The position numbers and the translations under genes were made by a program. DNA of 64,000 bases from Oceanobacillus sojae (GTDB lineage: Bacteria; Bacillota; Bacilli; Bacillales; Amphibacillaceae), in assembly GCF_900162665.1 (NCBI RefSeq), contig NZ_LT727812.1:1224177-1288176 (forward strand), given 5' to 3'. Below the pieces are notes generated by a model, which was not told the DNA's origin, made no database searches, and saw only the letters and a list, made by a program, of their open reading frames with translations. Position 1 is the stretch's first letter. Every line of letters starts with the position of its first letter. Positions 24,827 to 35,117 of this stretch are shown one piece after another.

Positions 24827-25270
24827 AGACTTATGTCTAACCTTTCCTGTATGTGCCTATGGATAAAGCAATGGAAGCTGGCTAATTTTAATAACGCTTT
24901 AAACTACAATGTGATTTTTAAAGAAATAACAATCCCCCTTCTATTTTTTTATAACTTCCTGAGAAACACTTACTGTAGACTGCGGGTTTTGAACTGTAAT
25001 GAACTTCCCGGCAGTTCCAAAATAAGAAACTGTGAACATGTTCCGCATCTGAAGCTTTGAAAGAATTATTTCATGGTAGGACTCCAATGCTGAGCCAGCT
25101 GAGAGTATAATTTCTTTCCTCTTTCCGCAGGTATCATTTTCCTCGCTGCTCTGGAAAATACGCTGCAACTTTACCCAATAGACTTACAATTGATTTAAAT
25201 TCGTCACACTTCCTACATATATTGCTCATTATTTCACAAATACTTCACGAAGTTACATCACATTCCATGA
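24827..25270. other. Intergenic between bicupin and lipoprotein genes
   Basis: About 440 bases. A 75-codon minus-strand frame (24941-25168) lacks a ribosome site and any recognisable family. Overlapping it, ATG at about 25,135 after CGAGGAAA opens a 23-codon minus-strand frame, also unrecognised. Neither is claimed as a gene. Confidence 0.4.
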
Positions 25271-25296
25271 TATAATTATTGTGAAATAGATCACAA
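25271..25296 (+). promoter_or_regulatory. Lipoprotein promoter -10 with Rex/Fnr-like operator
   Basis: TATAAT (25271-25276) is followed at once by TTGTGAAATAGATCACAA (25279-25296), a near-perfect palindrome. It differs from the Rex consensus TTGTGAA-N4-TTCACAA at one base and fully matches the Fnr/Crp form TGTGA-N6-TCACA. Its position over the presumed start site suits repression. Confidence 0.65.
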
Positions 25297-25318
25297 GAAT
25301 ATATTAGGAGGTTTTATA

Positions 25319-25888
25319 ATGAGATTTAAGCTGATATTAATGTCTTTTTTATCCCTGTTACTGGTAGGTTTTTTGGCTGCATGCGGCTCGAATGAAGAGG
25401 ATCAGGCCGATGAAAATGCAGCAAACGATACGGAAGAGACAGAAGGTACAGATGAAACAGAAGAAGATGTGGTAACAACAGCCTCATTGGTTAATGAGCC
25501 AGACGCCTTTGTCAATGCTGTCAGCGAAGATGGAACATGGATTATTGCTGCACTTGATGATATCACAATAGATGAGGATGTAGTGGTCGCCGGTCAGTTC
25601 TACGATAAGGATGACGAATCTGGTGATATTTATCGTAAAATTGCACCATATACACAAGACGAAGATCATAATATTACAGATTCATTTACCATTACTGTTC
25701 CAAGCCTAACTGTACAGAGTGAAAACTTGAATTTCCAAGGTGGTACATTACAGGGTGATGTGATTGTCGAAGCAAATGGTTTTATGCTTGATGAAACAGC
25801 TACCATTGACGGAAATTTAAAATTTGCTAATAAAGAAGCAGAAAGCTCAGCTACTATTGATGGCGAAGTTACAGGCGAAATCGAATAA
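25319..25888 (+). CDS. Secreted lipoprotein next to the EET locus, no FMN-attachment motif
   Basis: The 189-residue protein has a lipoprotein signal (LAAC, Cys22), then a 30-residue Asp/Glu/Thr-rich linker, then a folded part with beta-strand repeats (ITIDEDVVVAGQFYD, LQGDVIVEANGFML, TIDGNLKFANK, TIDGEVTGEIE) resembling a bactofilin-like polymer-forming fold. In Listeria-type EET loci a lipoprotein (PplA) carries FMN on Thr within D-x-x-[GS]-[AS]-[ST]-type ApbE motifs; I see no such motif here. It may be a surface protein of another role, or it may replace PplA. AGGAGG lies eight bases before ATG 25319. It is convergent with the ecfT end of the locus. Confidence 0.7.
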   Translation: MRFKLILMSFLSLLLVGFLAACGSNEEDQADENAANDTEETEGTDETEEDVVTTASLVNEPDAFVNAVSEDGTWIIAALDDITIDEDVVVAGQFYDKDDESGDIYRKIAPYTQDEDHNITDSFTITVPSLTVQSENLNFQGGTLQGDVIVEANGFMLDETATIDGNLKFANKEAESSATIDGEVTGEIE

Positions 25889-25964
25889 TAACAGAAAGTT
25901 TATTATTAATTGAGCCTTGGCTCCATCCCCGCTTCAAATCGAATTTATTTATACCACGCTATTA

Positions 25965-25992
25965 AAGCGGGCAGGCCAAAGCTTGTCCGCTT
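25965..25992 (+). terminator. Candidate terminator of the lipoprotein gene
   Basis: AAGCGGGCA (25965-25973) pairs with TGTCCGCTT (25984-25992) with one G-U pair. There is only a short, weak T-rich tail (CATTTAT). Confidence 0.4.
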
Positions 25993-26029
25993 CATTTATG
26001 TACAATCCGCTCTCATCAAATACTCTCCT

Positions 26030-26088
26030 ATTACATGACGGGGTCCCATCTCCATTCCACAACCAGAGATGAGACCCCGCCATGTAAT
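26030..26088. terminator. Long GC-rich hairpin between convergent transcripts
   Basis: A 23-base stem (26030-26052 with 26066-26088, core CGGGGTC) with two mismatches and a 13-base loop. CTTATTTT follows on the plus strand. It separates the lipoprotein gene from the end of ecfT. Confidence 0.65.
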
Positions 26089-26119
26089 CTTATTTTCCCT
26101 TTAGTCCCTTCTCCTGCAA

Positions 26120-26932
26120 TCAATGAAAGTGATGACCCTCTGTCCGCAGTATAAATAAGGTAACTGCCAGCAGCACCATAGCAATAAGAGCGGCTATATC
26201 TGTTTTCTGCCAATGCAAGCGGCGAAAGGACGACCTTGGATTGTTGGACTGGTAACCTCTTACCTCCATTGCATTAGCCATATCTTCTGCTCTTATCAGG
26301 GAACTGACGAATAAAGGAACAAAGATAGGAACAATTTTCTTTATCTGCTGAGGCAGTGATCCTTCTCCAAACACAGTGCCTCTTGCACGTTGTGCGTCCA
26401 TTACCTTCTGTGTTTCATCCAGTATAATCGGAATAAAACGCAGCGCTATGGACAGCATGAGCGATATTTCATCAACTGGCAGCTTCAGCCGTTTTAATGG
26501 CTGAAGCAGATAATTAATTGCATCCGTTAAATCAATCGGTTTTGTTGTTAAGGTTACTACGGTTGAGACAAAAATAATCATGGTAAAGCGGCTGAAGATA
26601 TACATCCCATTGATTAATCCAAATGATGAAATTGTAATCGGTCCCCAATCAATATAAATTTTGCCGCCCGCAGTAAACAGCACCTGCAGTGATACTGTAA
26701 ACAAGATCAACCATATTAATGGCCTGACACCCCGGAGATATATACGGATGGATACACCGGATAGCTTCATCATCGTAAAGGTAAAAAGCCAAAGCACCAG
26801 ATATGTTATCCAATTATTGGCGATAAATAAGATAAAAATAAATGAAATCCCTGCCAGTAATTTAGCTCTCGGATCAATACGATGAAGAAGCGAATCCCCC
26901 GGAAAATAACGTCCTAAGATTAATTTGTTCAT
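26120..26932 (-). CDS. ECF transporter transmembrane subunit EcfT (EET-associated)
   Basis: The roughly 270-residue membrane protein has HRIDPRAKLLAGI at the N-terminus, about five helices, and the two coupling motifs ARG in the form DAQRARGT and the C-terminal RAEDMANAMEVRGY. These identify the EcfT scaffold that joins two EcfA ATPases to a substrate-binding S component. ATG 26932 overlaps the ecfA2 stop (ATGA); the longer upstream frame lies inside ecfA2 and is discarded. In Listeria an EET-specific EcfT/EcfA module handles flavin for the extracytosolic flavoproteins, and the operon here implies the same. Confidence 0.9.
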   Translation of the reverse strand: MNKLILGRYFPGDSLLHRIDPRAKLLAGISFIFILFIANNWITYLVLWLFTFTMMKLSGVSIRIYLRGVRPLIWLILFTVSLQVLFTAGGKIYIDWGPITISSFGLINGMYIFSRFTMIIFVSTVVTLTTKPIDLTDAINYLLQPLKRLKLPVDEISLMLSIALRFIPIILDETQKVMDAQRARGTVFGEGSLPQQIKKIVPIFVPLFVSSLIRAEDMANAMEVRGYQSNNPRSSFRRLHWQKTDIAALIAMVLLAVTLFILRTEGHHFH

Positions 26933-27786
26933 GCCAATCCCGCCTCTATTAAAGCAGCTGCCAGCTGATCCCGTGTCAGACAGATTTGTGATAAGGTTAC
27001 ATTCGCTTCCTGCTCTATCCTTATTTGCAGTTTTCTGGCCTGCGGCAAATCCAGACCCCATTGATGAATCGCTTCTACATCAGCAAATAATCTCTCCGGT
27101 TCATCCTGAAAAACAATTCTGCCGCTGTCCATTACGATGACTTCATCAGCGTATAAGGCCACATCATCCATATCATGAGTAACCAGTAAGATAGTTAACC
27201 CGCGTTCTTTATGCCAGGCATGAAGAAGATCCATCACTTCTTTTTTCCCTTTTGGGTCAAGCCCGGCACCAGGTTCATCCAAAACAAGAATATCTGGACG
27301 CATCGCCAATATTCCTGCCATTGCCACATATCTTTTTTGACCGCCAGATAGAGAAAATGGCGACTTGGATAATAGAGAAGCCTCTAAACCGACACGCTCA
27401 ATCACTTCCAGAGCAATCTCTTTTGCTTCTGCTTCCGGTACACCAAAATTCATCGGGCCGAACATAATATCTTTTTCAACTGTTTCAGCAAATAATTGCG
27501 ACTCCGGGAATTGAAATACCATTCCCACTTTTTGACGCACTTCCTTTACTGACTGCTTTGCGTTTTCTGATGTAATCGTTATATCTCCAACTGACACGCT
27601 TCCTTTTACCGGAATAAGCAATCCATTCATCAGCTTCAGCAAACTTGATTTCCCGGAACCTGTCTTTCCCACTACCGCCGTAAAAGATCCTGACTTTACT
27701 GTTGTACTGATTGATTTTAATATCTCTGGACTTCTAATCGGTCCCGCCTGGTAATCTGCCGTTACTTGCTGAAGATTTATCTGCAT
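26929..27786 (-). CDS. ECF transporter ATPase EcfA2-type
   Basis: The roughly 285-residue ATP-binding subunit has Walker A GKTGSGKSS, Q-loop FQFPESQLF, signature LSGGQKRYVAMAG, Walker B ILVLDEPGAGLDP and the switch His in LLVTHDMDD. FQFPE and GAGLDP are typical of EcfA2 (CbiO-type) partners. The ATG at 27786 overlaps the end of ecfA1 (ATGCAGATAA). It energises transport with ecfA1 and ecfT. The substrate is likely a flavin, by context. Confidence 0.9.
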   Translation of the reverse strand: MQINLQQVTADYQAGPIRSPEILKSISTTVKSGSFTAVVGKTGSGKSSLLKLMNGLLIPVKGSVSVGDITITSENAKQSVKEVRQKVGMVFQFPESQLFAETVEKDIMFGPMNFGVPEAEAKEIALEVIERVGLEASLLSKSPFSLSGGQKRYVAMAGILAMRPDILVLDEPGAGLDPKGKKEVMDLLHAWHKERGLTILLVTHDMDDVALYADEVIVMDSGRIVFQDEPERLFADVEAIHQWGLDLPQARKLQIRIEQEANVTLSQICLTRDQLAAALIEAGLA

Positions 27787-28589
27787 AGCCACCACACCAT
27801 TTCATCTTCTGTCATATACTTATCAGGTATGGTACTTCCCTGTTCTTTTAATTTTCTTCTCAACGCTTCGATGAATGGAACATCTTCACGCTCTTCCCTT
27901 TGAAAAATCTGGGCCGGCTTGCCCGTTTCTATCACTTTTCCTTTTTTTAAAACTAATATTCTATCAGCTGCCGCCGCCTCATTCATATCATGTGTAATCG
28001 AAATAATGGTCAGCTGATGCTGTTTCCGCAATTCATCTAAGAGGGTCATGAAATCCTGTCTGCTTTTGGGATCAAGCATAACCATCGCCTCGTCTAGTAC
28101 GATAATGGCAGGATGTAACGCTAAGAGCCCGGCGATTGCCACGCGCTGCTTCTGTCCTCCTGATAATCGGGACGGATCATAATCCGCATAGCCGGTCATA
28201 CCAACCATTGCTAACGCTCTATCAACCCGCTGCTTCATTTCATCATAGGGCATGTTCTGATTTTCTAAAGCAAATGCCACATCATCTTTTACAGTCGTTC
28301 CAATAAATTGATTTTCCGGATTTTGAAATACCAGTCCTATCTGACTTCGCAGCTTCCATTTCGTTTCCTCCTTCAGCTCCATACCATTAATATAGATTCT
28401 TCCAGTGGATGGCATACGCAGACCAACTAGTAAACTGGCTAATGTCGACTTTCCGGAACCGTTATGTCCCACAACAGCCAGCCATTCTCCACGCTGGGCT
28501 GTAAAGGAAAAATCTGTAATGGTATGCTCCCGTTTTTTCAGATTATAATGAAAGGTTACATTTTCTGCTTTGATACAAGGTATTGACAT
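27777..28589 (-). CDS. ECF transporter ATPase EcfA1-type
   Basis: The 270-residue ATP-binding subunit has Walker A GHNGSGKST, Q-loop FQNPENQFIG, signature LSGGQKQRVAIAG and Walker B IIVLDEAMVMLDP (AMVMLD in place of the more usual ATSMLD), with the switch His in ISITHDMNE. FQNPENQ is typical of EcfA1. ATG 28589 is chosen; the longer frame overlaps dmkA. It starts 22 bases after the prenyltransferase gene. Confidence 0.9.
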   Translation of the reverse strand: MSIPCIKAENVTFHYNLKKREHTITDFSFTAQRGEWLAVVGHNGSGKSTLASLLVGLRMPSTGRIYINGMELKEETKWKLRSQIGLVFQNPENQFIGTTVKDDVAFALENQNMPYDEMKQRVDRALAMVGMTGYADYDPSRLSGGQKQRVAIAGLLALHPAIIVLDEAMVMLDPKSRQDFMTLLDELRKQHQLTIISITHDMNEAAAADRILVLKKGKVIETGKPAQIFQREEREDVPFIEALRRKLKEQGSTIPDKYMTEDEMVWWLCR

Positions 28590-28611
28590 TTCCCCACCCC
28601 TCTCTCCAATA

Positions 28612-29550
28612 TTACAGAATGACGGATATAAGCAAAGTAATAGCCATCGTTCCATTTACAAGCATCATATTTTTCAAAGATAATGGAAAAGTTTCCAGTT
28701 TACTTTGTTTTTGCTGGAATTGTCTGATGCTTTTTATAATCGGAATCAGAACCAGACAGACAAGTAAGACATAAACAGGAAGCACCTGAAGCAGCACAGC
28801 ACTTACAATCGCTGCAAACGAAAGCAGGTAAAGCAGCTGAAATAGCATTAGTGCATTTTTTTTGCCAATATAGTAAGGAAGAGTAAAGCGTTGATTGGCA
28901 ATATCCTCTTCCAGGTCACAGATATTATTTGCCAACATAATATTAGCAATGGTCATCATACACGGAAGGGAAACAAGAAAAATCTCCAGCAGCAAAAGGA
29001 CATTCATTTCAAAAGTAATCATGTATCCGCTAAAGCCTAAATGCGCAATTCCTTGATCAGCGGCGTTTACATAGATAGCCAGGAAGGTAATTCCTAACCC
29101 CATTGTTACACCAGAAAATACTTCTCCAAGAGGCATGCGGGACAGCGGAATAGGTCCGAATGTATAAAAAATACCGACTGCAAAGCAAAGCATACCGATA
29201 ATCAGTACAAATAAATCCGTACGAAATACGAGCCAGATTCCTAACATAGAAGCTATCGCCAACATAGTAATAATCGTTGTCACAACTCTCTTTTCAGGGA
29301 TATTCTTTTGTCCGATAATATTGGACTGTCTGCGATAGTCATCACTCAGCGCCTTCTTATAATCCATGTAATTATTAATTGCTGTTGTTGTTAAATCAAA
29401 CAGCAGCATGGCACTAAAGAAGATAACCGTATTCAGCGGTTCAAATACATCATAACGATAAATTACAAATAATAGTCCAATTAGAAATGGAAACAAACTT
29501 GCTAGTTTAGTACGGATTTCTACCAGCTTCAAAAACGTAGGCAGTGTCAT
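28612..29550 (-). CDS. dmkA: UbiA-type prenyltransferase, DmkA-like (demethylmenaquinone for EET)
   Basis: The roughly 312-residue membrane enzyme has eight or nine helices. The two Asp-rich prenyl-diphosphate/Mg motifs are NNYMDYKKALSDDY and NNICDLEEDI. It belongs to the MenA-like DHNA polyprenyltransferase family; in Listeria a second MenA paralogue, DmkA, supplies the demethylmenaquinone used by EET. Its position between apbE and the ECF genes, with a polyprenyl synthetase (DmkB-like) in the opposite arm, supports DmkA rather than housekeeping MenA. ATG 29550 (or GTG 29553) follows GAGGGAG; it starts 20 bases after apbE. Confidence 0.85.
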   Translation of the reverse strand: MTLPTFLKLVEIRTKLASLFPFLIGLLFVIYRYDVFEPLNTVIFFSAMLLFDLTTTAINNYMDYKKALSDDYRRQSNIIGQKNIPEKRVVTTIITMLAIASMLGIWLVFRTDLFVLIIGMLCFAVGIFYTFGPIPLSRMPLGEVFSGVTMGLGITFLAIYVNAADQGIAHLGFSGYMITFEMNVLLLLEIFLVSLPCMMTIANIMLANNICDLEEDIANQRFTLPYYIGKKNALMLFQLLYLLSFAAIVSAVLLQVLPVYVLLVCLVLIPIIKSIRQFQQKQSKLETFPLSLKNMMLVNGTMAITLLISVIL

Positions 29551-29570
29551 CACAGCCAGCTCCCTCTCAT

Positions 29571-30623
29571 TTATTCTATTAATCTAAAATCCTCATCTGT
29601 CAGTTCGAAATTATCAACTAATCCATCCGTGATATATACGCTTTTATCCTCCATCACGAAGATAGCTTCTGCACCGTCGAAGTCCTGCATAAATTCAATA
29701 CCTTCCTGCAGTCCCTTTGAAAACAACAGTGTAGAAAGTCCATCTCCATCAACCGAACGTTCACTGACAACAGAAACACTGGCAAGTTCACCTTCAAATG
29801 GATATCCCGTCTTTGGATTCAATAAGTGATGGTATATTTCACCATCCACTTCTAAATAACGCTCATAAATGCCTGAAGTAACGATAGACTGATCTGCTGC
29901 AGTTAATCTGCCGACAGTCTCCCCTTTTCCCGAGAACGGATTTTGGACTCCAACTACCCATGGATCACCGGATGTTTGATTGCCCATCACATAAATATTC
30001 CCTCCTAAATCAATCACAGCTGTTGTGACGCCTTCCTTCTCTAACAGCTCCACTATTTCATCAGCAATATAGCCTTTGGCAATCGCTCCCATATCTAACC
30101 GCATTCCTGAATCCTTCAGCATAACCGCTTGCTCCGCTTCATCCAGCTCAATTCTTTCATAATCAATCAGCGGCAGTATATCATCGATTTCATCCTGGGA
30201 CGGTTTCCGGGCATCCTCCATGCCGATATTCCAAAGACTGGTTAACGGTCCGACAGCAATATCAAATGAACCCTCAGCCATTCCACTGTAATCCTTGCCT
30301 TGATTAATAACCTGCCACACATCCTCCGACACATGAACAGGTGCTATCCCTGCCTGTTCATTAATTTCAGCAACCTCTGAACCACTTTCATTCGCAGTCA
30401 TTTGCTGTTCCAGCTCTTCAATTCGATCAAAGACCTTATCTAATACCGGTTCCTTCCCCTCATCATAGATTTTGATCGTTACAACCGTTCCTAATAAGAA
30501 TTCTGTTTCGCTATATGGATTATTGCTTAATGGTGATTCATCATCTGCTGAATCAGCACTTGTAGAACAGCCTGCGGTGACCAGTATAATCAGCATCATC
30601 ATAGTACAAATTTGTTTCTTCAT
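29571..30623 (-). CDS. fmnB: FAD:protein FMN transferase lipoprotein (ApbE/FmnB)
   Basis: The 350-residue protein has a lipoprotein signal ending VTAGC (Cys19), so it acts on the outer face of the membrane. ApbE motifs are present: FLLGTVVTIKIY, LDMGAIAKGYIADEI, TAVIDLGGNIYVMG, HHLLNPKTGYPFEG and SVVSERSVDGDGLST with the Mg ligands. It transfers FMN from FAD to Thr of exported proteins. The start is ATG 30623, seven bases from GGGAGG; earlier in-frame codons lack a site. It is the first gene of the minus-strand arm; two Rex/Fnr-like palindromes lie upstream. Confidence 0.9.
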   Translation of the reverse strand: MKKQICTMMMLIILVTAGCSTSADSADDESPLSNNPYSETEFLLGTVVTIKIYDEGKEPVLDKVFDRIEELEQQMTANESGSEVAEINEQAGIAPVHVSEDVWQVINQGKDYSGMAEGSFDIAVGPLTSLWNIGMEDARKPSQDEIDDILPLIDYERIELDEAEQAVMLKDSGMRLDMGAIAKGYIADEIVELLEKEGVTTAVIDLGGNIYVMGNQTSGDPWVVGVQNPFSGKGETVGRLTAADQSIVTSGIYERYLEVDGEIYHHLLNPKTGYPFEGELASVSVVSERSVDGDGLSTLLFSKGLQEGIEFMQDFDGAEAIFVMEDKSVYITDGLVDNFELTDEDFRLIE

Positions 30624-30672
30624 TGTCATGCCTCCCTGATTCTTATAAGTTGCCATTAACATGATAAACATC

Positions 30673-30733
30673 ATTATATTTGTGAAATAAATCACATTAA
30701 TTCAACTCATTTTAAATGTGAATCATTTCACAA
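30673..30733 (-). promoter_or_regulatory. apbE promoter with two Rex/Fnr-like palindromes
   Basis: On the minus strand the -10 TATAAT is 30678-30673. TTGTGAAATAAATCACAT (30680-30697) abuts it and covers the -35 region; ATGTGAATCATTTCACAA (30716-30733) lies 36 bases further upstream (centre to centre). Both contain perfect TGTGA-N6-TCACA dyads and are one or two bases from the Rex consensus. Confidence 0.65.
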
Positions 30734-30811
30734 TATTACATGTCAATTGTATAATTTATATCGTATCATGTCTATAAAAAACACAAATAAATCTCTTAAT
30801 ACCATTGACTT

Positions 30812-30827
30812 TGTCATTAAAATGACA
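30812..30827. promoter_or_regulatory. Perfect 16-bp palindrome between apbE and ndh2
   Basis: TGTCATTAAAATGACA is a perfect dyad lying midway between the two divergent EET arms. The protein that might bind it is unknown. Confidence 0.5.
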
Positions 30828-30858
30828 CAGCTTAATAATTAAAAATATATTTTTAATT

Positions 30859-30908
30859 TGTGAACTATTTATCAAATGTATGGACATTATTTCTTTATAT
30901 GTTAGAAT
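30859..30908 (+). promoter_or_regulatory. ndh2 promoter with degenerate Fnr/Rex-like half-site
   Basis: TGGACA (30881-30886), 16 bases and TAGAAT (30903-30908) form a candidate promoter. TGTGAACTATTTATCA (30859-30874) upstream keeps one perfect TGTGA half and a degenerate second half. Confidence 0.35.
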
Positions 30909-30964
30909 AAAATTGTTCAGTTGTTCACAAAGTTAACATTATAGATTACAAAGGAGTGAATACA

Positions 30965-32839
30965 ATGGCGGAGAAGAATATTGTTATTATTGGTGCTGGC
31001 TACGCCGGTGTGCATGCAGCTAAAAAGCTTGCAAAAAAATACAAACGTGACGATTCTGTTTCCATTACTCTTATAGATCGGCATTCCTATCATACAATGA
31101 TGACAGAATTACACGAAGTTGCTGCACACCGTGTAGAGCCTTCTGCTATTCAATTTGATTTACGGAAATTATTCAATCGTACGAAAGTGAAGCTTATCAC
31201 AGACAATGTCACTAATGTCGATCATGCGGCGCAGACTGTTACAACAGAGCATGGTGAGTTTGCTTACGACTACCTGATTCTGGGGATGGGCGGTGAAGCA
31301 AACGACTTCGGCACACCAGGAGTAAAGGAGCATGGTTTTACCCTCTGGTCCTGGGAGGACGCTGTTCGAATCCGGCACCATTTAGAAGATGTTGTCAAAC
31401 GCGCTTCCTTAGAACGTGATCCTGAAAAACGCCGAGCAATGCTTACCTTTACAGTTTGTGGTTCCGGCTTTACCGGTATTGAAATGATTGGGGAACTCAT
31501 CGAATGGAAGTATCGTTTAGCAAAGGAAAACAAACTGGATGAAGAAGAAATCGGGCTGTATGTTGTGGAAGCAGCAGCATCTATTTTAAATATGCTGGAC
31601 CGGAAAAGTGCGGATAAAGCAGAGAAATATTTAAATAAAAAAGGCGTTAAATTGCTTAAGAATTCGCCGATTGTCGAGGTAAAGGAAGATGGCGTAGTAT
31701 TAAAATCCGGTGAAACACTTCCTACCCACACGCTGATTTGGACTGCCGGAGTGAAGGCAAATTCTGATACGAAGGATTATGGTGTTCCAGCTGCAAGAGC
31801 AGGACGTCTGAAAGTAAATGAATTTATGGAAGCAGAAAATTTAGAGAATGTCTATGTTATTGGCGATCTGGCTTATTTTGAAGAAGAGGAAGGAAAACCG
31901 GCTCCGCAAATTGTAGAAGCTGCTGAACAAACAGGTGTAACAGCAGCAAAATCCATTATTGCAGAAATAGATAACGGTCAAAAAGAAGCTTTTGAAGGGA
32001 AATACCACGGCACCATGGTTTCTATCGGCGCCAGATATGGTGTTGCGAATTTAATGGGGCTCCGCTTAAGCGGCTGGCTGGCTAATCTGATGAAGCATCT
32101 GGTTAATCTGTATTATTTTTTCGGAATAAGAAGCGGCTATTATATGTTTCATTATATTATGCATGAATTTTTCCAGACAAAAGATAAGCGCAATATTTTC
32201 AGAGATACGCTTACCAGATATGGCAATGTTTTATGGAGCTTACCTTTACGGCTGTTTGTCGGCGGTTTTTGGCTTGAGGAAGCAGCTTCTAAAATTTGGG
32301 GTGAATCTGTCTGGAGTGAAGTCACCTCTGGCTCTGCGGGAATCTCACGGTTATTTCAAGGAATCGGAGAAGACTCCTGGCTGACTGGAAATACGGTAAA
32401 CATGCCGTTTGAATGGCTGCAAACAACGACCAGTGGTGCCAGTGAAGCGGTTGATGGCGGTGCTGAGTGGGCTACACCACTTTTAAGTAAAATGCCAGGT
32501 ATTTTTGAGTGGTTTATGCAAATTATGCTACCGACACCGGAAGTAGCTATCTTTATGCAGAAGGTTATGACCTTTATTGAATTATTTATCGGGCTCGCTA
32601 TTGTATTTGGCTTATTCACCTGGCTTGCCAGTGCTGCAAGTGCCGGATTCCTGGTGATGTTTACTTTATCCGCGATGCTGGGCTGGGATCAAATCTGGGC
32701 TCTTCCTGCTTCCATCGCCTTAATGAATGGTTCCGGACGTTCCATTGGTTTAGATTACTGGGTCGTGCCATGGCTGCAAAGAAAATCAGGTCTGATTTGG
32801 TACGGAAAAGAACGTGCTATTTATAAAGACCGGGAATAA
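30965..32839 (+). CDS. ndh2: Type II NADH dehydrogenase with C-terminal membrane domain (EET Ndh2)
   Basis: The 624-residue protein has a FAD-binding GAGYAGVHAAKKL (10-22), a second nucleotide-binding CGSGFTGIEMIGEL (about residue 161) and VYVIGDLAYF, as in NDH-2. Unlike housekeeping NDH-2 (about 400 residues) it continues into a domain of about 200 residues with several membrane helices (FYMFHYIMH-like region, FIELFIGLAIVFGLFTW, GFLVMFTLSAMLGW), the architecture of the EET-dedicated Ndh2 of Listeria. It passes electrons from NADH to the demethylmenaquinone pool. ATG 30965 lies eight bases after AAGGAG and is preferred over GTG 30956. It heads the plus-strand arm. Confidence 0.92.
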   Translation: MAEKNIVIIGAGYAGVHAAKKLAKKYKRDDSVSITLIDRHSYHTMMTELHEVAAHRVEPSAIQFDLRKLFNRTKVKLITDNVTNVDHAAQTVTTEHGEFAYDYLILGMGGEANDFGTPGVKEHGFTLWSWEDAVRIRHHLEDVVKRASLERDPEKRRAMLTFTVCGSGFTGIEMIGELIEWKYRLAKENKLDEEEIGLYVVEAAASILNMLDRKSADKAEKYLNKKGVKLLKNSPIVEVKEDGVVLKSGETLPTHTLIWTAGVKANSDTKDYGVPAARAGRLKVNEFMEAENLENVYVIGDLAYFEEEEGKPAPQIVEAAEQTGVTAAKSIIAEIDNGQKEAFEGKYHGTMVSIGARYGVANLMGLRLSGWLANLMKHLVNLYYFFGIRSGYYMFHYIMHEFFQTKDKRNIFRDTLTRYGNVLWSLPLRLFVGGFWLEEAASKIWGESVWSEVTSGSAGISRLFQGIGEDSWLTGNTVNMPFEWLQTTTSGASEAVDGGAEWATPLLSKMPGIFEWFMQIMLPTPEVAIFMQKVMTFIELFIGLAIVFGLFTWLASAASAGFLVMFTLSAMLGWDQIWALPASIALMNGSGRSIGLDYWVVPWLQRKSGLIWYGKERAIYKDRE

Positions 32840-32869
32840 ACTCCAGTCATGCTTGCCTTAGAAAACAAA

Positions 32870-32906
32870 CAAGGAAACTGTCCGCAAACTTTGGCTGGTT
32901 TCCTTG
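32870..32906 (+). other. Hairpin between ndh2 and eetA
   Basis: CAAGGAAAC (32870-32878) and GTTTCCTTG (32898-32906) form a 9-bp stem in the 158-base gap between ndh2 and eetA. There is no T run; it may mark an mRNA processing or attenuation site. Confidence 0.4.
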
Positions 32907-32997
32907 AACCATTTCTTTCATGAGACGAAATCCAGAATATATATTTTATAGATTACTATGAAGGCTTACAAGTTAAGCTGTCAGGGGGTGAGTGGGA

Positions 32998-33414
32998 ATG
33001 AAGGATATCTTTCATATGATGAAACCATGGGATGTTATCTTAACTGTCCTGCTAGTGCTTCTATCTTTTCTTCCTATCGCCATCTTTGTTTCTCAGCAGT
33101 CTCAGTATGCCGGAGAGGATTCAGTAAATATTGCAGTGATTACAGTAGATAATGAAGTTGTAGAAGAAATCCAACTGACTGATAATATGGAAACCAGAGA
33201 AATAGAGATTGCGATATCCGATCATGACAATAATATCATCGAGGTAGACAATGACCGTATTCATATAAAAAGTGCTACCTGTCCTGACCAGATATGTGTC
33301 CGTACAGGATATATCTCAAGACCTGGTCAGACAATTGTCTGTTTGCCGCATAAGCTCGTGGTAGAGATTCAATCTGACAGCGGGGAGGCAGATGATATCA
33401 TTATCAGCTCGTAA
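32998..33414 (+). CDS. eetA: NusG domain II protein, EetA-like
   Basis: The 138-residue protein has one N-terminal membrane helix (WDVILTVLLVLLSFLPIAIF) and an outside NusG domain II-type beta domain carrying the conserved CPDQICVRTGYISRPGQTIV and CLPHKLVVEI. This is the EetA family, needed with EetB for flavinylated lipoprotein function in Listeria EET. AGGGGGTG is seven bases before ATG 32998; the GTG at 32992 is less likely. It is followed after 53 bases by eetB. Confidence 0.9.
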   Translation: MKDIFHMMKPWDVILTVLLVLLSFLPIAIFVSQQSQYAGEDSVNIAVITVDNEVVEEIQLTDNMETREIEIAISDHDNNIIEVDNDRIHIKSATCPDQICVRTGYISRPGQTIVCLPHKLVVEIQSDSGEADDIIISS

Positions 33415-33467
33415 TCCTGCTTATGAAAATTTATTAACGTCCCATAAACAGATAGGAAGGGTCTGCA

Positions 33468-34022
33468 ATGACAAATAATCAGCGTCTAGTATATATCGCA
33501 TTGTTAGCTGCTCAGGCGGTCATTATCAGTTTAATAGAAAGAGCTATTCCCTCTCCCTTCGCCATCGCTCCAGGCGCAAAGCTTGGTTTAGCAAATATTA
33601 TTACATGTATGGCATTATATACACTGCCTGTAAAAGACGCATCCAAGGTTGTCATGATACGGATTATCCTTGCTACACTCTTGGGCGGTACAATTTCATC
33701 ATTCATGTATAGTGCCTCCGGAGCTGCTTTAAGTTTTATTGGGATGTGCAGCGTAAAAAAGCTCGGTCCATCCCGCATCAGCTTAATTGGCGTCAGTGTC
33801 GCCGGAGCCATCCTGCATAATATCGGACAGTTAACAATCGCCAGCTGGGTTGCCCAAACATGGACCGTTCTGCTCTATCTTCCCGTTCTATCTTTTTTCG
33901 GTATTCTATCCGGTATTGCTATGGGAATGGTTGCTAATTATTTATTAAATCACGTGGAACAGCTTCACTATTATCGAAGTCTGCAGGAAATGAAATATAC
34001 ACCGCTCAATCAAGTGTCTTAG
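33468..34022 (+). CDS. eetB: Gx transporter family membrane protein, EetB-like
   Basis: The 184-residue membrane protein has about five helices. LIERAIPSPFAIAPGAKLGL then ANIITCMALY near the N-terminus and GGTISSFMYSASGAALSF are the Gx transporter (heptaprenyl diphosphate synthase component I) signature. In EET loci this is EetB, thought to work with EetA in delivering flavin or a related cofactor across the membrane. GGAAGGG precedes ATG 33468. Confidence 0.9.
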   Translation: MTNNQRLVYIALLAAQAVIISLIERAIPSPFAIAPGAKLGLANIITCMALYTLPVKDASKVVMIRIILATLLGGTISSFMYSASGAALSFIGMCSVKKLGPSRISLIGVSVAGAILHNIGQLTIASWVAQTWTVLLYLPVLSFFGILSGIAMGMVANYLLNHVEQLHYYRSLQEMKYTPLNQVS

Positions 34023-34065
34023 TGTAAAACAAAATCCCTATGTTCGTTAAATGGAGGTTATAGCC

Positions 34066-35058
34066 ATGGCTATCCCAGTTCACCCGATGTGGGGGCCTTA
34101 CCCCCGCTTACAATCTGATTTACAATCTGTCTTGCAGGTGATTGAATCTCACCTGCAAATCCATGATAAGCGTATTGAAGCCACGATTAAAGAATTAGTC
34201 TATTCCGGCGGGAAATTACTGCGTCCGGCCTATACGCTTTTATGTGCTCAGATTGGCGATGCATCAAACCATGATAAAGAAAGGTCCATAGCCGTTGCTG
34301 CAGCACTGGAAACATTGCATATGGCAACGCTGATTCATGATGATGTCATTGATGAAGCAGACTTCCGTCATGGAGCCCCCACTATTCATACACAGCAGGG
34401 TAACCAATTTGCCATCTATTCCGGTGATTATTTATTTTGTGTCTGCTTTACCATTTTGTCCAAGTATGCCCGTACATTAGCACATCTTGAATTTAATGCA
34501 CGCAGTATGGAAAAAATTTTAACAGGTGAACTGGATCAGCTCCATGCACGTTATCAAATAGGTACCAGTATCAAAGACTATTTAGCCCGTATTTCTGGTA
34601 AAACCGCACAGCTGTTTGCCGTCAGCTGCTATTCAGGTGCCATTACCAGCCAGGCAACACGAAGACAGACGATGCTTGCCTGGAGTATGGGACACTATAT
34701 CGGCATGGCCTTCCAGATTATAGATGATGTGTTAGATTTTAAAGGGGATTTTAACACTGTGAGAAAACCAACCCTGGCAGATATTCGTCAGGGCATCTAC
34801 ACGCTTCCGCTGATTTATGCCTTACGTGAACAGCCGGAGAAATTGTCTCCTTATCTAAATAAAAAAGCGGATTTGACTGATGATGAGTTAATGGAGGTAC
34901 TTGCTATTGTTGAACAGACGAAAGGGATAGAGAAATCAAAACGGCTTGCCCGAAAGTATATAGACAAAGCATTAAAATCCCTTAGCAAACTGCCGGACGG
35001 GGACTATAAGGAGACTTTGTATGAATTGACTACCATGCTGCTGGATCGAAAAATGTAA
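34066..35058 (+). CDS. dmkB: Polyprenyl diphosphate synthase, DmkB-like
   Basis: The 330-residue trans-prenyltransferase has the first Asp-rich motif HDDVIDEADFRHG with ETLHMATLI before it, GGKLLRPAY (substrate binding) and the second Asp-rich motif FQIIDDVLDFKGD. It makes the polyprenyl diphosphate (probably C30-C35) used by DmkA for the EET quinone. GGAGG lies eight bases before ATG 34066, favoured over ATG 34051. Last gene of the arm; a strong terminator follows. Confidence 0.9.
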   Translation: MAIPVHPMWGPYPRLQSDLQSVLQVIESHLQIHDKRIEATIKELVYSGGKLLRPAYTLLCAQIGDASNHDKERSIAVAAALETLHMATLIHDDVIDEADFRHGAPTIHTQQGNQFAIYSGDYLFCVCFTILSKYARTLAHLEFNARSMEKILTGELDQLHARYQIGTSIKDYLARISGKTAQLFAVSCYSGAITSQATRRQTMLAWSMGHYIGMAFQIIDDVLDFKGDFNTVRKPTLADIRQGIYTLPLIYALREQPEKLSPYLNKKADLTDDELMEVLAIVEQTKGIEKSKRLARKYIDKALKSLSKLPDGDYKETLYELTTMLLDRKM

Positions 35059-35070
35059 CTATGTCATCTG

Positions 35071-35117
35071 AAGAATCCATTTGAAATCATCAGTATATCA
35101 AATGGATTCTTTTTTTT
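35071..35117 (+). terminator. Terminator of the ndh2-eetA-eetB-dmkB operon
   Basis: AAGAATCCATTTGA (35071-35084) pairs perfectly with TCAAATGGATTCTT (35098-35111), followed by eight T in total. Confidence 0.92.

What the first reader, a model, noticed from the sequence alone, without database searches (positions are those of the whole stretch)
25271..35117. Complete flavin-based extracellular electron transfer locus, split into divergent arms and marked by Rex/Fnr-type palindromes
The window shows apbE-dmkA-ecfA1-ecfA2-ecfT facing away from ndh2-eetA-eetB-dmkB, the full gene set known for EET in Listeria, here in a Bacillaceae chromosome. Three TTGTGAA-like dyads sit at the lipoprotein promoter (25279-25296) and the apbE promoter (30680-30697, 30716-30733), with a degenerate one before ndh2 (30859-30874). 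Two overlap the core promoter, which suits a repressor such as Rex (released at high NADH). The same dyads also satisfy the Fnr/Crp consensus. NADH-gated expression of an NADH-consuming export path for electrons would be a neat circuit.
Basis: partly seen in the sequence, partly recalled or inferred. Interest (0 to 1): 0.75.

Follow-up and report, generated by a model that had tools for sequence, protein, structure and literature searches.

The report
Rex-marked electron-export locus lacking PplA
A salt-loving bacterium carries a gene cluster for pushing electrons out of the cell; its usual flavin-carrying surface protein is missing, an unnamed surface lipoprotein travels with the cluster, and the NADH-oxidising enzyme itself appears to carry a flavin attachment site on its outer face, which could explain how such bacteria hand electrons to iron.

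Summary
The locus is real: an Oceanobacillus flavin-based EET cluster, ecfT-ecfA2-ecfA1-dmkA-apbE facing away from ndh2-eetA-eetB-dmkB. It is not complete in the Listeria sense: PplA is absent, and no FMN_bind protein was found in the genome. The dyads are real (3 of 13 exact TGTGA-N6-TCACA places in 4.8 Mb) and recur in 24 of 28 orthologous apbE-ndh2 gaps. Rex fits best: it is encoded, and the same operator precedes ldh, pflB, adhE and nirB. No Bacillus-type Fnr was seen.

(1) The lipoprotein at 25319-25888 is an unnamed beta-solenoid family that tracks EET Ndh2: 27 of 28 EET genomes in the family sample, 0 of 119 others; the exception carries PplA. (2) Ndh2 has an ApbE-type flavinylation motif (window: SGAS) in a variable loop inferred to face outside: 67 of 68 distinct sequences, 11 of 12 clusters against 0.6 expected. 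The lipoprotein has a relaxed form (DVVTTAS). If ApbE flavinylates Ndh2, PplA-independent iron reduction has a candidate carrier. Flavinylation and Rex binding are inferred, not shown.

The parts
25279..25296 (.). Rex-type operator just downstream of the lipoprotein -10 (TGATATAAT, 25268-25276, my reading)
   Evidence: sequence; 1 mismatch to TTGTGAAN4TTCACAA; footprint in relatives; TGTGA-N6-TCACA within 85 nt of the start in 10 of 27 lipoprotein genes
25319..25888 (+). EET-linked beta-solenoid lipoprotein, unnamed family; lipobox LAAC, acidic linker, folded domain from about residue 52
   Evidence: (no Pfam; only a sub-cutoff NCBIfam hit)
25466..25486 (+). codons of D50-V-V-T-T-A-S56, relaxed ApbE-type motif at the linker/domain boundary
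   Evidence: D50, A55, S56 invariant in 20 sequences; motif in 24 of 27 cluster representatives against 0.29 expected
26120..27061 (-). ecfT (FmnA-like ECF transmembrane subunit)
   Evidence: PF02361
26929..27795 (-). ecfA2, ECF ATPase
   Evidence: TIGR04521 over cutoff
27777..28655 (-). ecfA1, ECF ATPase
   Evidence: TIGR04520 over cutoff
28612..29553 (-). dmkA, DHNA prenyltransferase
   Evidence: NF009926 over cutoff
29571..30623 (-). apbE (FmnB-like FAD:protein FMN transferase lipoprotein, LVTAGC lipobox)
   Evidence: PF02424 E 1e-87; best solved relative 7esa and same-sequence entries, E 1e-124
30680..30697 (.). Rex-type operator next to a TATAAT on the - strand (30678-30673, my reading) of apbE
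30716..30733 (.). second apbE operator; also overlaps the first hexamer of an 11-of-12 promoter-like site toward ndh2 (30727-30755)
30858..30875 (.). degenerate Rex-type site upstream of the ndh2 promoter
   Evidence: 2 mismatches
   Evidence: TTGTTCAN4TTCACA in 24 of 28 orthologous gaps
30965..32839 (+). ndh2, EET-type NDH-2 with C-terminal DoxX-like membrane part
   Evidence: PF07992 and PF07681
32303..32503 (+). codons of Ndh2 loop residues 447-513, inferred outside the cell
32432..32443 (+). codons of S490-G-A-S493, ApbE-type flavinylation motif in the Ndh2 loop
   Evidence: 67 of 68 distinct Ndh2 loops hold [ST][GAS]A[ST]; 11 of 12 clusters against 0.6 expected; A492 invariant in 30 sequences
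32992..33414 (+). eetA (NusG_II domain)
   Evidence: PF07009
33468..34022 (+). eetB (ECF S-component-like, FAD export)
   Evidence: PF07456; function of the Listeria protein from PMC9973259
34051..35058 (+). dmkB, polyprenyl diphosphate synthase
   Evidence: PF00348

Best explanation
This is a flavin-based extracellular electron transfer (EET) locus of an Oceanobacillus, and a variant of the Listeria type. Shown by sequence: the EET gene set without PplA; Rex-type operators at the lipoprotein, apbE and ndh2 promoters; near-perfect co-occurrence of the lipoprotein with EET Ndh2 in the family sample; a conserved ApbE-type motif in the Ndh2 loop. Inferred mechanism: when NADH is high, Rex leaves the operators and both arms plus the lipoprotein are expressed, together with ldh, adhE and other NADH-consuming genes. 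EcfT-EcfA1-EcfA2-EetB exports FAD. ApbE, outside the membrane, transfers FMN from it. Ndh2 oxidises NADH inside and reduces the quinone made with DmkA and DmkB. ApbE attaches FMN to S493 in the outside loop of Ndh2 itself, and perhaps to S56 of the beta-solenoid lipoprotein. These covalent flavins, instead of PplA, take electrons from quinol and pass them to ferric iron or shuttles. Confidence by step: EET locus 0.93; Rex control 0.8; lipoprotein part of EET 0.85; Ndh2 flavinylated 0.55; lipoprotein flavinylated 0.4.
For: Gene set. No FMN_bind protein in the genome. Operators and canonical Rex targets; Rex gene; conservation. Lipoprotein with EET Ndh2: 27 of 28 against 0 of 119 genomes; class sample 18 of 38 against 0 of 360. 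Of the 42 named lipoprotein loci, 21 have an EET-type ndh2 in the locus; of the other 21 genomes, 19 have one elsewhere (in one, G167, the tail match is on another contig; 7 of the 21 are genomes of the family sample again). Gene links far away: Halanaerobacter ndh2, a UbiA-like gene (by eye) and the lipoprotein in a row; Eubacteriaceae lipoprotein-ndh2-dmkB-dmkA; Sporosalibacterium dmkA-lipoprotein. The one family EET genome without it has a two-domain FMN_bind lipoprotein between apbE and ndh2. Ndh2 loop motif. Canonical motif at the homologous lipoprotein position in 3 of 82 domains, DAVTGAT, DVVTGAT, DAVSGAS. Literature: E. faecalis reduces iron without PplA but needs Ndh3 and EetB, route from quinol 'not known' (PMC9864754, passages); L. 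plantarum without PplA still reduces iron with riboflavin but needs Ndh2 and EetA/B (PMC9888254, passages).
Against: No experiment. In the lipoprotein the glycine of the ApbE motif is T, A or S in 74 of 77 motif-bearing domains, and 5 of 82 domains lack the motif; the review says G to A keeps about 50% and the passages I saw are silent on T. The window's Ndh2 lacks the aspartate of D-x-x-[ST]-G-A-[ST] (the review calls the effect of losing it minor). The relaxed motif [ST][GAS]A[ST] also occurs after the loop in 27 of 68 distinct Ndh2s (strict form 1 of 68). PplA and the lipoprotein coexist in G547 and Sporosalibacterium; 16 of the 18 lipoprotein genomes of the class sample also have FMN_bind proteins somewhere, and 7 of 8 loci L266-L273 have a weak PplA-like neighbour of ndh2 (21-27% identity). 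So 'instead of PplA' holds for the window's family, not everywhere. Other ApbE substrates (NqrB/RnfD, DUF2271, Flavodoxin_4) were not searched for in this genome. The L. plantarum papers differ on when PplA is needed. Loop topology is argued from charge, not measured; the Ndh2 fold was never predicted.
Confidence: 0.62

Rival explanations
1. The locus is an ordinary EET cluster whose electrons leave by diffusible quinols or free flavins; the lipoprotein is a structural or wall-spanning beta-solenoid and carries no flavin; the Ndh2 loop motif is a structural turn.
Against: The Ndh2 loop is hardly alignable yet keeps the motif in 11 of 12 clusters. EetB, whose Listeria counterpart feeds FAD to FmnB, is needed for iron reduction in E. 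faecalis where PplA is not. The homologous lipoprotein site is canonical in three domains.
Confidence: 0.3
2. The dyads are sites of a Crp/Fnr-family regulator, not Rex.
For: All three satisfy TGTGA-N6-TCACA, and two CRP-family genes exist. The lipoprotein and proximal apbE operators have A instead of T at the inner right position.
Against: Inner A/T, which Crp/Fnr sites do not need (recalled), is kept in 21 of 26 half-sites genome-wide. Several targets are classic Rex genes. Neither CRP-family protein ends in a Cys cluster, and one is YeiL-like below cutoff.
Confidence: 0.12
3. TTGTGAA half-sites serve the two-component activator ResD, with Rex secondary.
For: Conserved TATTTCACAAA upstream of the lipoprotein promoter (window about 25228-25250), kept in relatives; the ResD half-site TTTGTGAAT is recalled only (a paper search returned 0).
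Against: The promoter-core sites are palindromes of Rex geometry; ResD was not searched for in the genome.
Confidence: 0.15

Closest known systems
Listeria monocytogenes FLEET locus (ndh2, eetA, eetB, dmkA, dmkB, fmnA, fmnB, pplA)
   Same: Counterparts of the listed genes but pplA; FAD-exporting ECF module with EetB; ApbE most like Listeria FmnB among solved structures.
   Different: No PplA; an unrelated beta-solenoid lipoprotein; dedicated ecfA1/ecfA2 in the locus; divergent arms with Rex-type operators.
PplA (FMN_bind lipoprotein with SGAT/TGAT sites)
   Same: Surface lipoprotein tied to apbE and ndh2, tandem-domain forms, D-x-x-[ST]-x-A-[ST] motif per domain.
   Different: No FMN_bind domain; beta-solenoid fold; canonical Gly rare (3 of 77 motif-bearing domains).
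Rex regulon of Bacilli (TTGTGAAW4TTCACAA in S. aureus, abstract of PMC2883068)
   Same: Operator geometry, Rex protein, ldh/pflB/adhE targets.
   Different: EET genes and a second flavinylation operon are added; EET operators are degenerate in one half.
ApbE substrate classes of Huang et al. 2024 (FMN-bind, NqrB/RnfD, DUF2271, Flavodoxin_4, FMN_red; PMC11334425, passages)
   Same: Motif-based prediction of covalent FMN near apbE.
   Different: Neither EET Ndh2 nor this lipoprotein is among the classes named in the passages I read.

Membership tests
Flavin-based EET (FLEET) locus | ndh2, eetB, dmkA, dmkB, apbE/fmnB and ECF-T fmnA together | tested here: met
   ecfT-ecfA2-ecfA1-dmkA-apbE/ndh2 order in 27 of 27 relatives, eetB-dmkB in 26 of 27 (L091 shows neither), eetA matched in 16 of 27
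Flavin-based EET (FLEET) locus | pplA, FMN_bind lipoprotein | tested here: not met
   PF04205 has no hit in the genome
Flavin-based EET (FLEET) locus | ferric or electrode reduction dependent on the locus | not testable with these tools
   no culture
Rex regulon | Rex encoded | tested here: met
Rex regulon | operator TTGTGAAN4TTCACAA at the core promoter, shared with ldh/pflB/adhE | tested here: met
   EET sites have 1-2 mismatches
Rex regulon | NADH-released binding | not testable with these tools
   needs gel shift
Bacillus Fnr regulon | Fnr with C-terminal cysteine cluster (recalled) | tested here: not met
   two PF00027 proteins found, neither with terminal Cys
PplA / FMN_bind family (for the lipoprotein) | FMN_bind domain | tested here: not met
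   no Pfam hit
ApbE substrates (Ndh2 loop) | D-x-x-[ST]-G-A-[ST] on the outside of the membrane | tested here: inconclusive
   window TTTSGAS: Asp absent; [ST]GA[ST] in 37 of 68 and D..[ST][GAST]A[ST] in 41 of 68 distinct loops; side of membrane inferred
ApbE substrates (lipoprotein) | D-x-x-[ST]-G-A-[ST] | tested here: inconclusive
   window DVVTTAS; strict form in 3 of 82 domains
ApbE substrates | covalent FMN found | not testable with these tools
   needs mass spectrometry

The most novel reading that the evidence does not exclude
EET-type Ndh2 is itself an ApbE substrate: a single enzyme that oxidises NADH inside and carries a covalent FMN on a loop outside. It would then be the missing PplA-independent donor to iron in Gram-positive EET, with the beta-solenoid lipoprotein as a further flavinylated carrier of a fold not yet known among ApbE substrates.
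Probability: 0.45. Interest if true: 0.88.

Novelty: new variant of a known kind. Interest (0 to 1): 0.72.

Why it matters
A 2022 paper on E. [quoted passage not shown] the L. plantarum authors suggest an unknown oxidoreductase or route (PMC9888254, passages). A conserved ApbE motif in the loop of Ndh2 turns this open question into one point mutation and one peptide to look for. The lipoprotein gives a marker gene for EET in halophiles where pplA searches fail. The operators place EET among the NADH-disposal genes under Rex, a link I did not find in print (searches; the passages of the Listeria Rex paper PMC8389512 do not name ndh2 or EET, and its supplement was not seen).

Tried and rejected
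Rejected: the lipoprotein as a PplA homologue (no FMN_bind). Strict PplA/lipoprotein exclusion: false, since G547 and Sporosalibacterium hold both. Fnr as regulator. Wide conservation of Rex sites at EET loci: 52 loci gave 25 sites with 2 or fewer mismatches against 1 control; 18 lie in the 10 loci L177-L186 (7 of these are family-sample genomes again), 7 in the other 42. EetA, EetB and ApbE as ApbE substrates: no motif.

Led nowhere: profile search of the lipoprotein in PDB sequences (4 hits, best E 0.27); ResD motif in papers (0 papers); Ndh2 structure prediction (queue full); Foldseek search of the lipoprotein model, so only the VIA second look was read. Light 2018 and 2019 are not held, so a report of Ndh2 flavinylation there cannot be excluded.

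Dropped before counts: weak lipoprotein hits, most of them to the signal peptide and linker (per-genome best E of the 27 counted genomes is 1.7e-45 or better, the next genome 6.9e-9; 3.6e-44 and 8.6e-6). Ndh2 loop set: 75 sequences hold 7 repeats of the same genome, so recounts 68; not in it are the fragment L194, the interrupted G075 copy, and 8 of the 38 class hits for which one search gave no locus.
Full report
What is there. The organism is an Oceanobacillus: O. neutriphilus and O. sojae carry the same locus with 90-100% identical EET proteins (records of the window's own genome may be left out there). ApbE starts at 30623 rather than 30695 (ribosome-binding site and lipobox, read). Its best solved relative is the FAD:protein FMN transferase of 7esa and four same-sequence entries (E 1e-124), one of which, 7f39, a review lists as the Listeria enzyme. 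The gene set is not complete in the Listeria sense: there is no PplA, and no FMN_bind hit in the genome.

The dyads. All three coordinates are exact. Genome-wide there are 13 exact TGTGA-N6-TCACA places against 2 for the reversed control; three lie here. The others stand by ldh, pflB, adhE, nirB (two), a DASS transporter, an SSF transporter/YtnP pair, a DoxX/PadR pair, an epimerase and an FMN_red-apbE operon (ldh, pflB, adhE and PadR named by eye from the sequences). Of the 26 half-sites, 21 keep the inner A/T typical of Rex. Rex is encoded. With up to 2 mismatches to TTGTGAAN4TTCACAA the genome has 56 places against 33 for the control, so 2-mismatch sites alone mean little; the ndh2 sites rest on conservation. 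In 28 orthologous apbE-ndh2 gaps (27 relatives and the window) 25 have at least one site with 2 or fewer mismatches, 53 sites against 1 control, and 24 of 28 have TTGTTCAN4TTCACA. Upstream of 27 lipoprotein genes (250 nt) 16 have such a site, control 0; an exact TGTGA-N6-TCACA near the start is in 10 of 27. Alignment of six close gaps shows the operators as conserved blocks. By reading, the lipoprotein site begins at the third base after an extended -10 (25268-25276), one apbE site lies beside a TATAAT on the minus strand (30678-30673), and the ndh2 site starts at the fifth base after the -10. The scanner finds the ndh2 promoter but not the lipoprotein or apbE ones, so those two are my reading.

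The Ndh2 loop. Between the first two membrane segments of the DoxX-like tail (window residues 447-513) EET Ndh2s have a loop of variable length and sequence (27 to 79 residues among the 12 cluster representatives). [ST][GAS]A[ST] is in 67 of 68 distinct sequences (74 of 75 with repeats); the miss, L190, reads AGAS. In 12 clusters at 65% identity it is in 11 (0.6 expected from shuffled loops); strict [ST]GA[ST] in 6 (0.2 expected); D..[ST][GAST]A[ST] in 8 (0.0 expected). A492 is invariant across 30 sequences. Elsewhere in the protein the strict form occurs in 1 of 68 and the relaxed form after the loop in 27 of 68. The chain enters the membrane from the cytosolic NDH-2 domain after a KDKR stretch, so the loop is inferred to face outside. 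Ordinary NDH-2s lack this tail: of the other hits listed (a capped list) most end between residues 377 and 400, a few run to 437. No paper that I found reports flavinylation of this enzyme (searches; passages only), but Light 2018 and 2019 could not be read, and of the 11 papers listed I opened passages of 6.

Why it fits. In E. faecalis iron reduction needs Ndh3 and EetB but not PplA, and the donor is unknown. In L. plantarum riboflavin-supported iron reduction needs Ndh2 and EetA/B but not PplA, although PplA is needed under other conditions. EetB exports FAD for FmnB in Listeria. A second ApbE substrate would explain the need for EetB, and of the five locus proteins checked (EetA, EetB, ApbE, Ndh2, lipoprotein) only Ndh2 has a strict [ST]GA[ST]. 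This is inference; whether ApbE is needed in those PplA-free cases I did not find.

Limits. Rex sites are few in distant EET loci, so Rex control looks like a feature of this lineage.

Noticed in passing
L023:5055-7991 (own genome C18:460554 on): A second flavinylation operon behind a Rex-type operator: FMN_red, FMN_red-PAS ending in DAVSGAT...DTVSGAT, and an ApbE without an evident signal peptide; resembles the FMN_red class of PMC11334425.
   Followed up: partly
window 30913-30930 and orthologous gaps: The ndh2 operator keeps the same asymmetric form TTGTTCA-N4-TTCACA in 24 of 28 gaps; why one half is degenerate there is unexplained.
   Followed up: partly
L116, L118, L119, L120, L121, L123, L125, L127 upstream of the lipoprotein: In 8 of 27 relatives the Rex-type operator of the lipoprotein is replaced near the same place by TTGTACA-N4-TGTACAA-like palindromes: a possible change of regulator.
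   Followed up: partly
window about 25228-25250: Conserved TATTTCACAAA element upstream of the lipoprotein promoter; similar TTTCACAAA stretches also stand before several relatives without the downstream operator; perhaps an activator site.
   Followed up: no
family sample: Patchy distribution: EET Ndh2 in 3 of 16 genomes of the own genus and 1 of 17 in genus g4 (86% identity to the window's), with two different surface-lipoprotein types in one genus; suggests horizontal transfer.
   Followed up: no
L213-L226 (Ndh2 loops): Ndh2 loops of the large-genome family f19 often hold two motif copies, e.g. DAASAAS and DAQSAAS in L215.
   Followed up: no
G002:C3, G007:C2, G037:C17, G021:C11 and others: Unlinked, more divergent paralogues of the lipoprotein (45-52% identity), some with tandem domains.
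   Followed up: no
L174-L176 (Halanaerobiales MAGs): Family members with a signal peptide but no lipobox, motif DTVSSAS.
   Followed up: no
window 30727-30755: Promoter-like TTCACA-17-TATAAT (11 of 12) reading toward ndh2, whose first hexamer lies in the apbE operator 30716-30733: one operator could serve both arms.
   Followed up: no
own genome C14:38473 (L033): A 1-mismatch Rex-type site upstream of a terminal oxidase operon, qoxA-like by eye.
   Followed up: no
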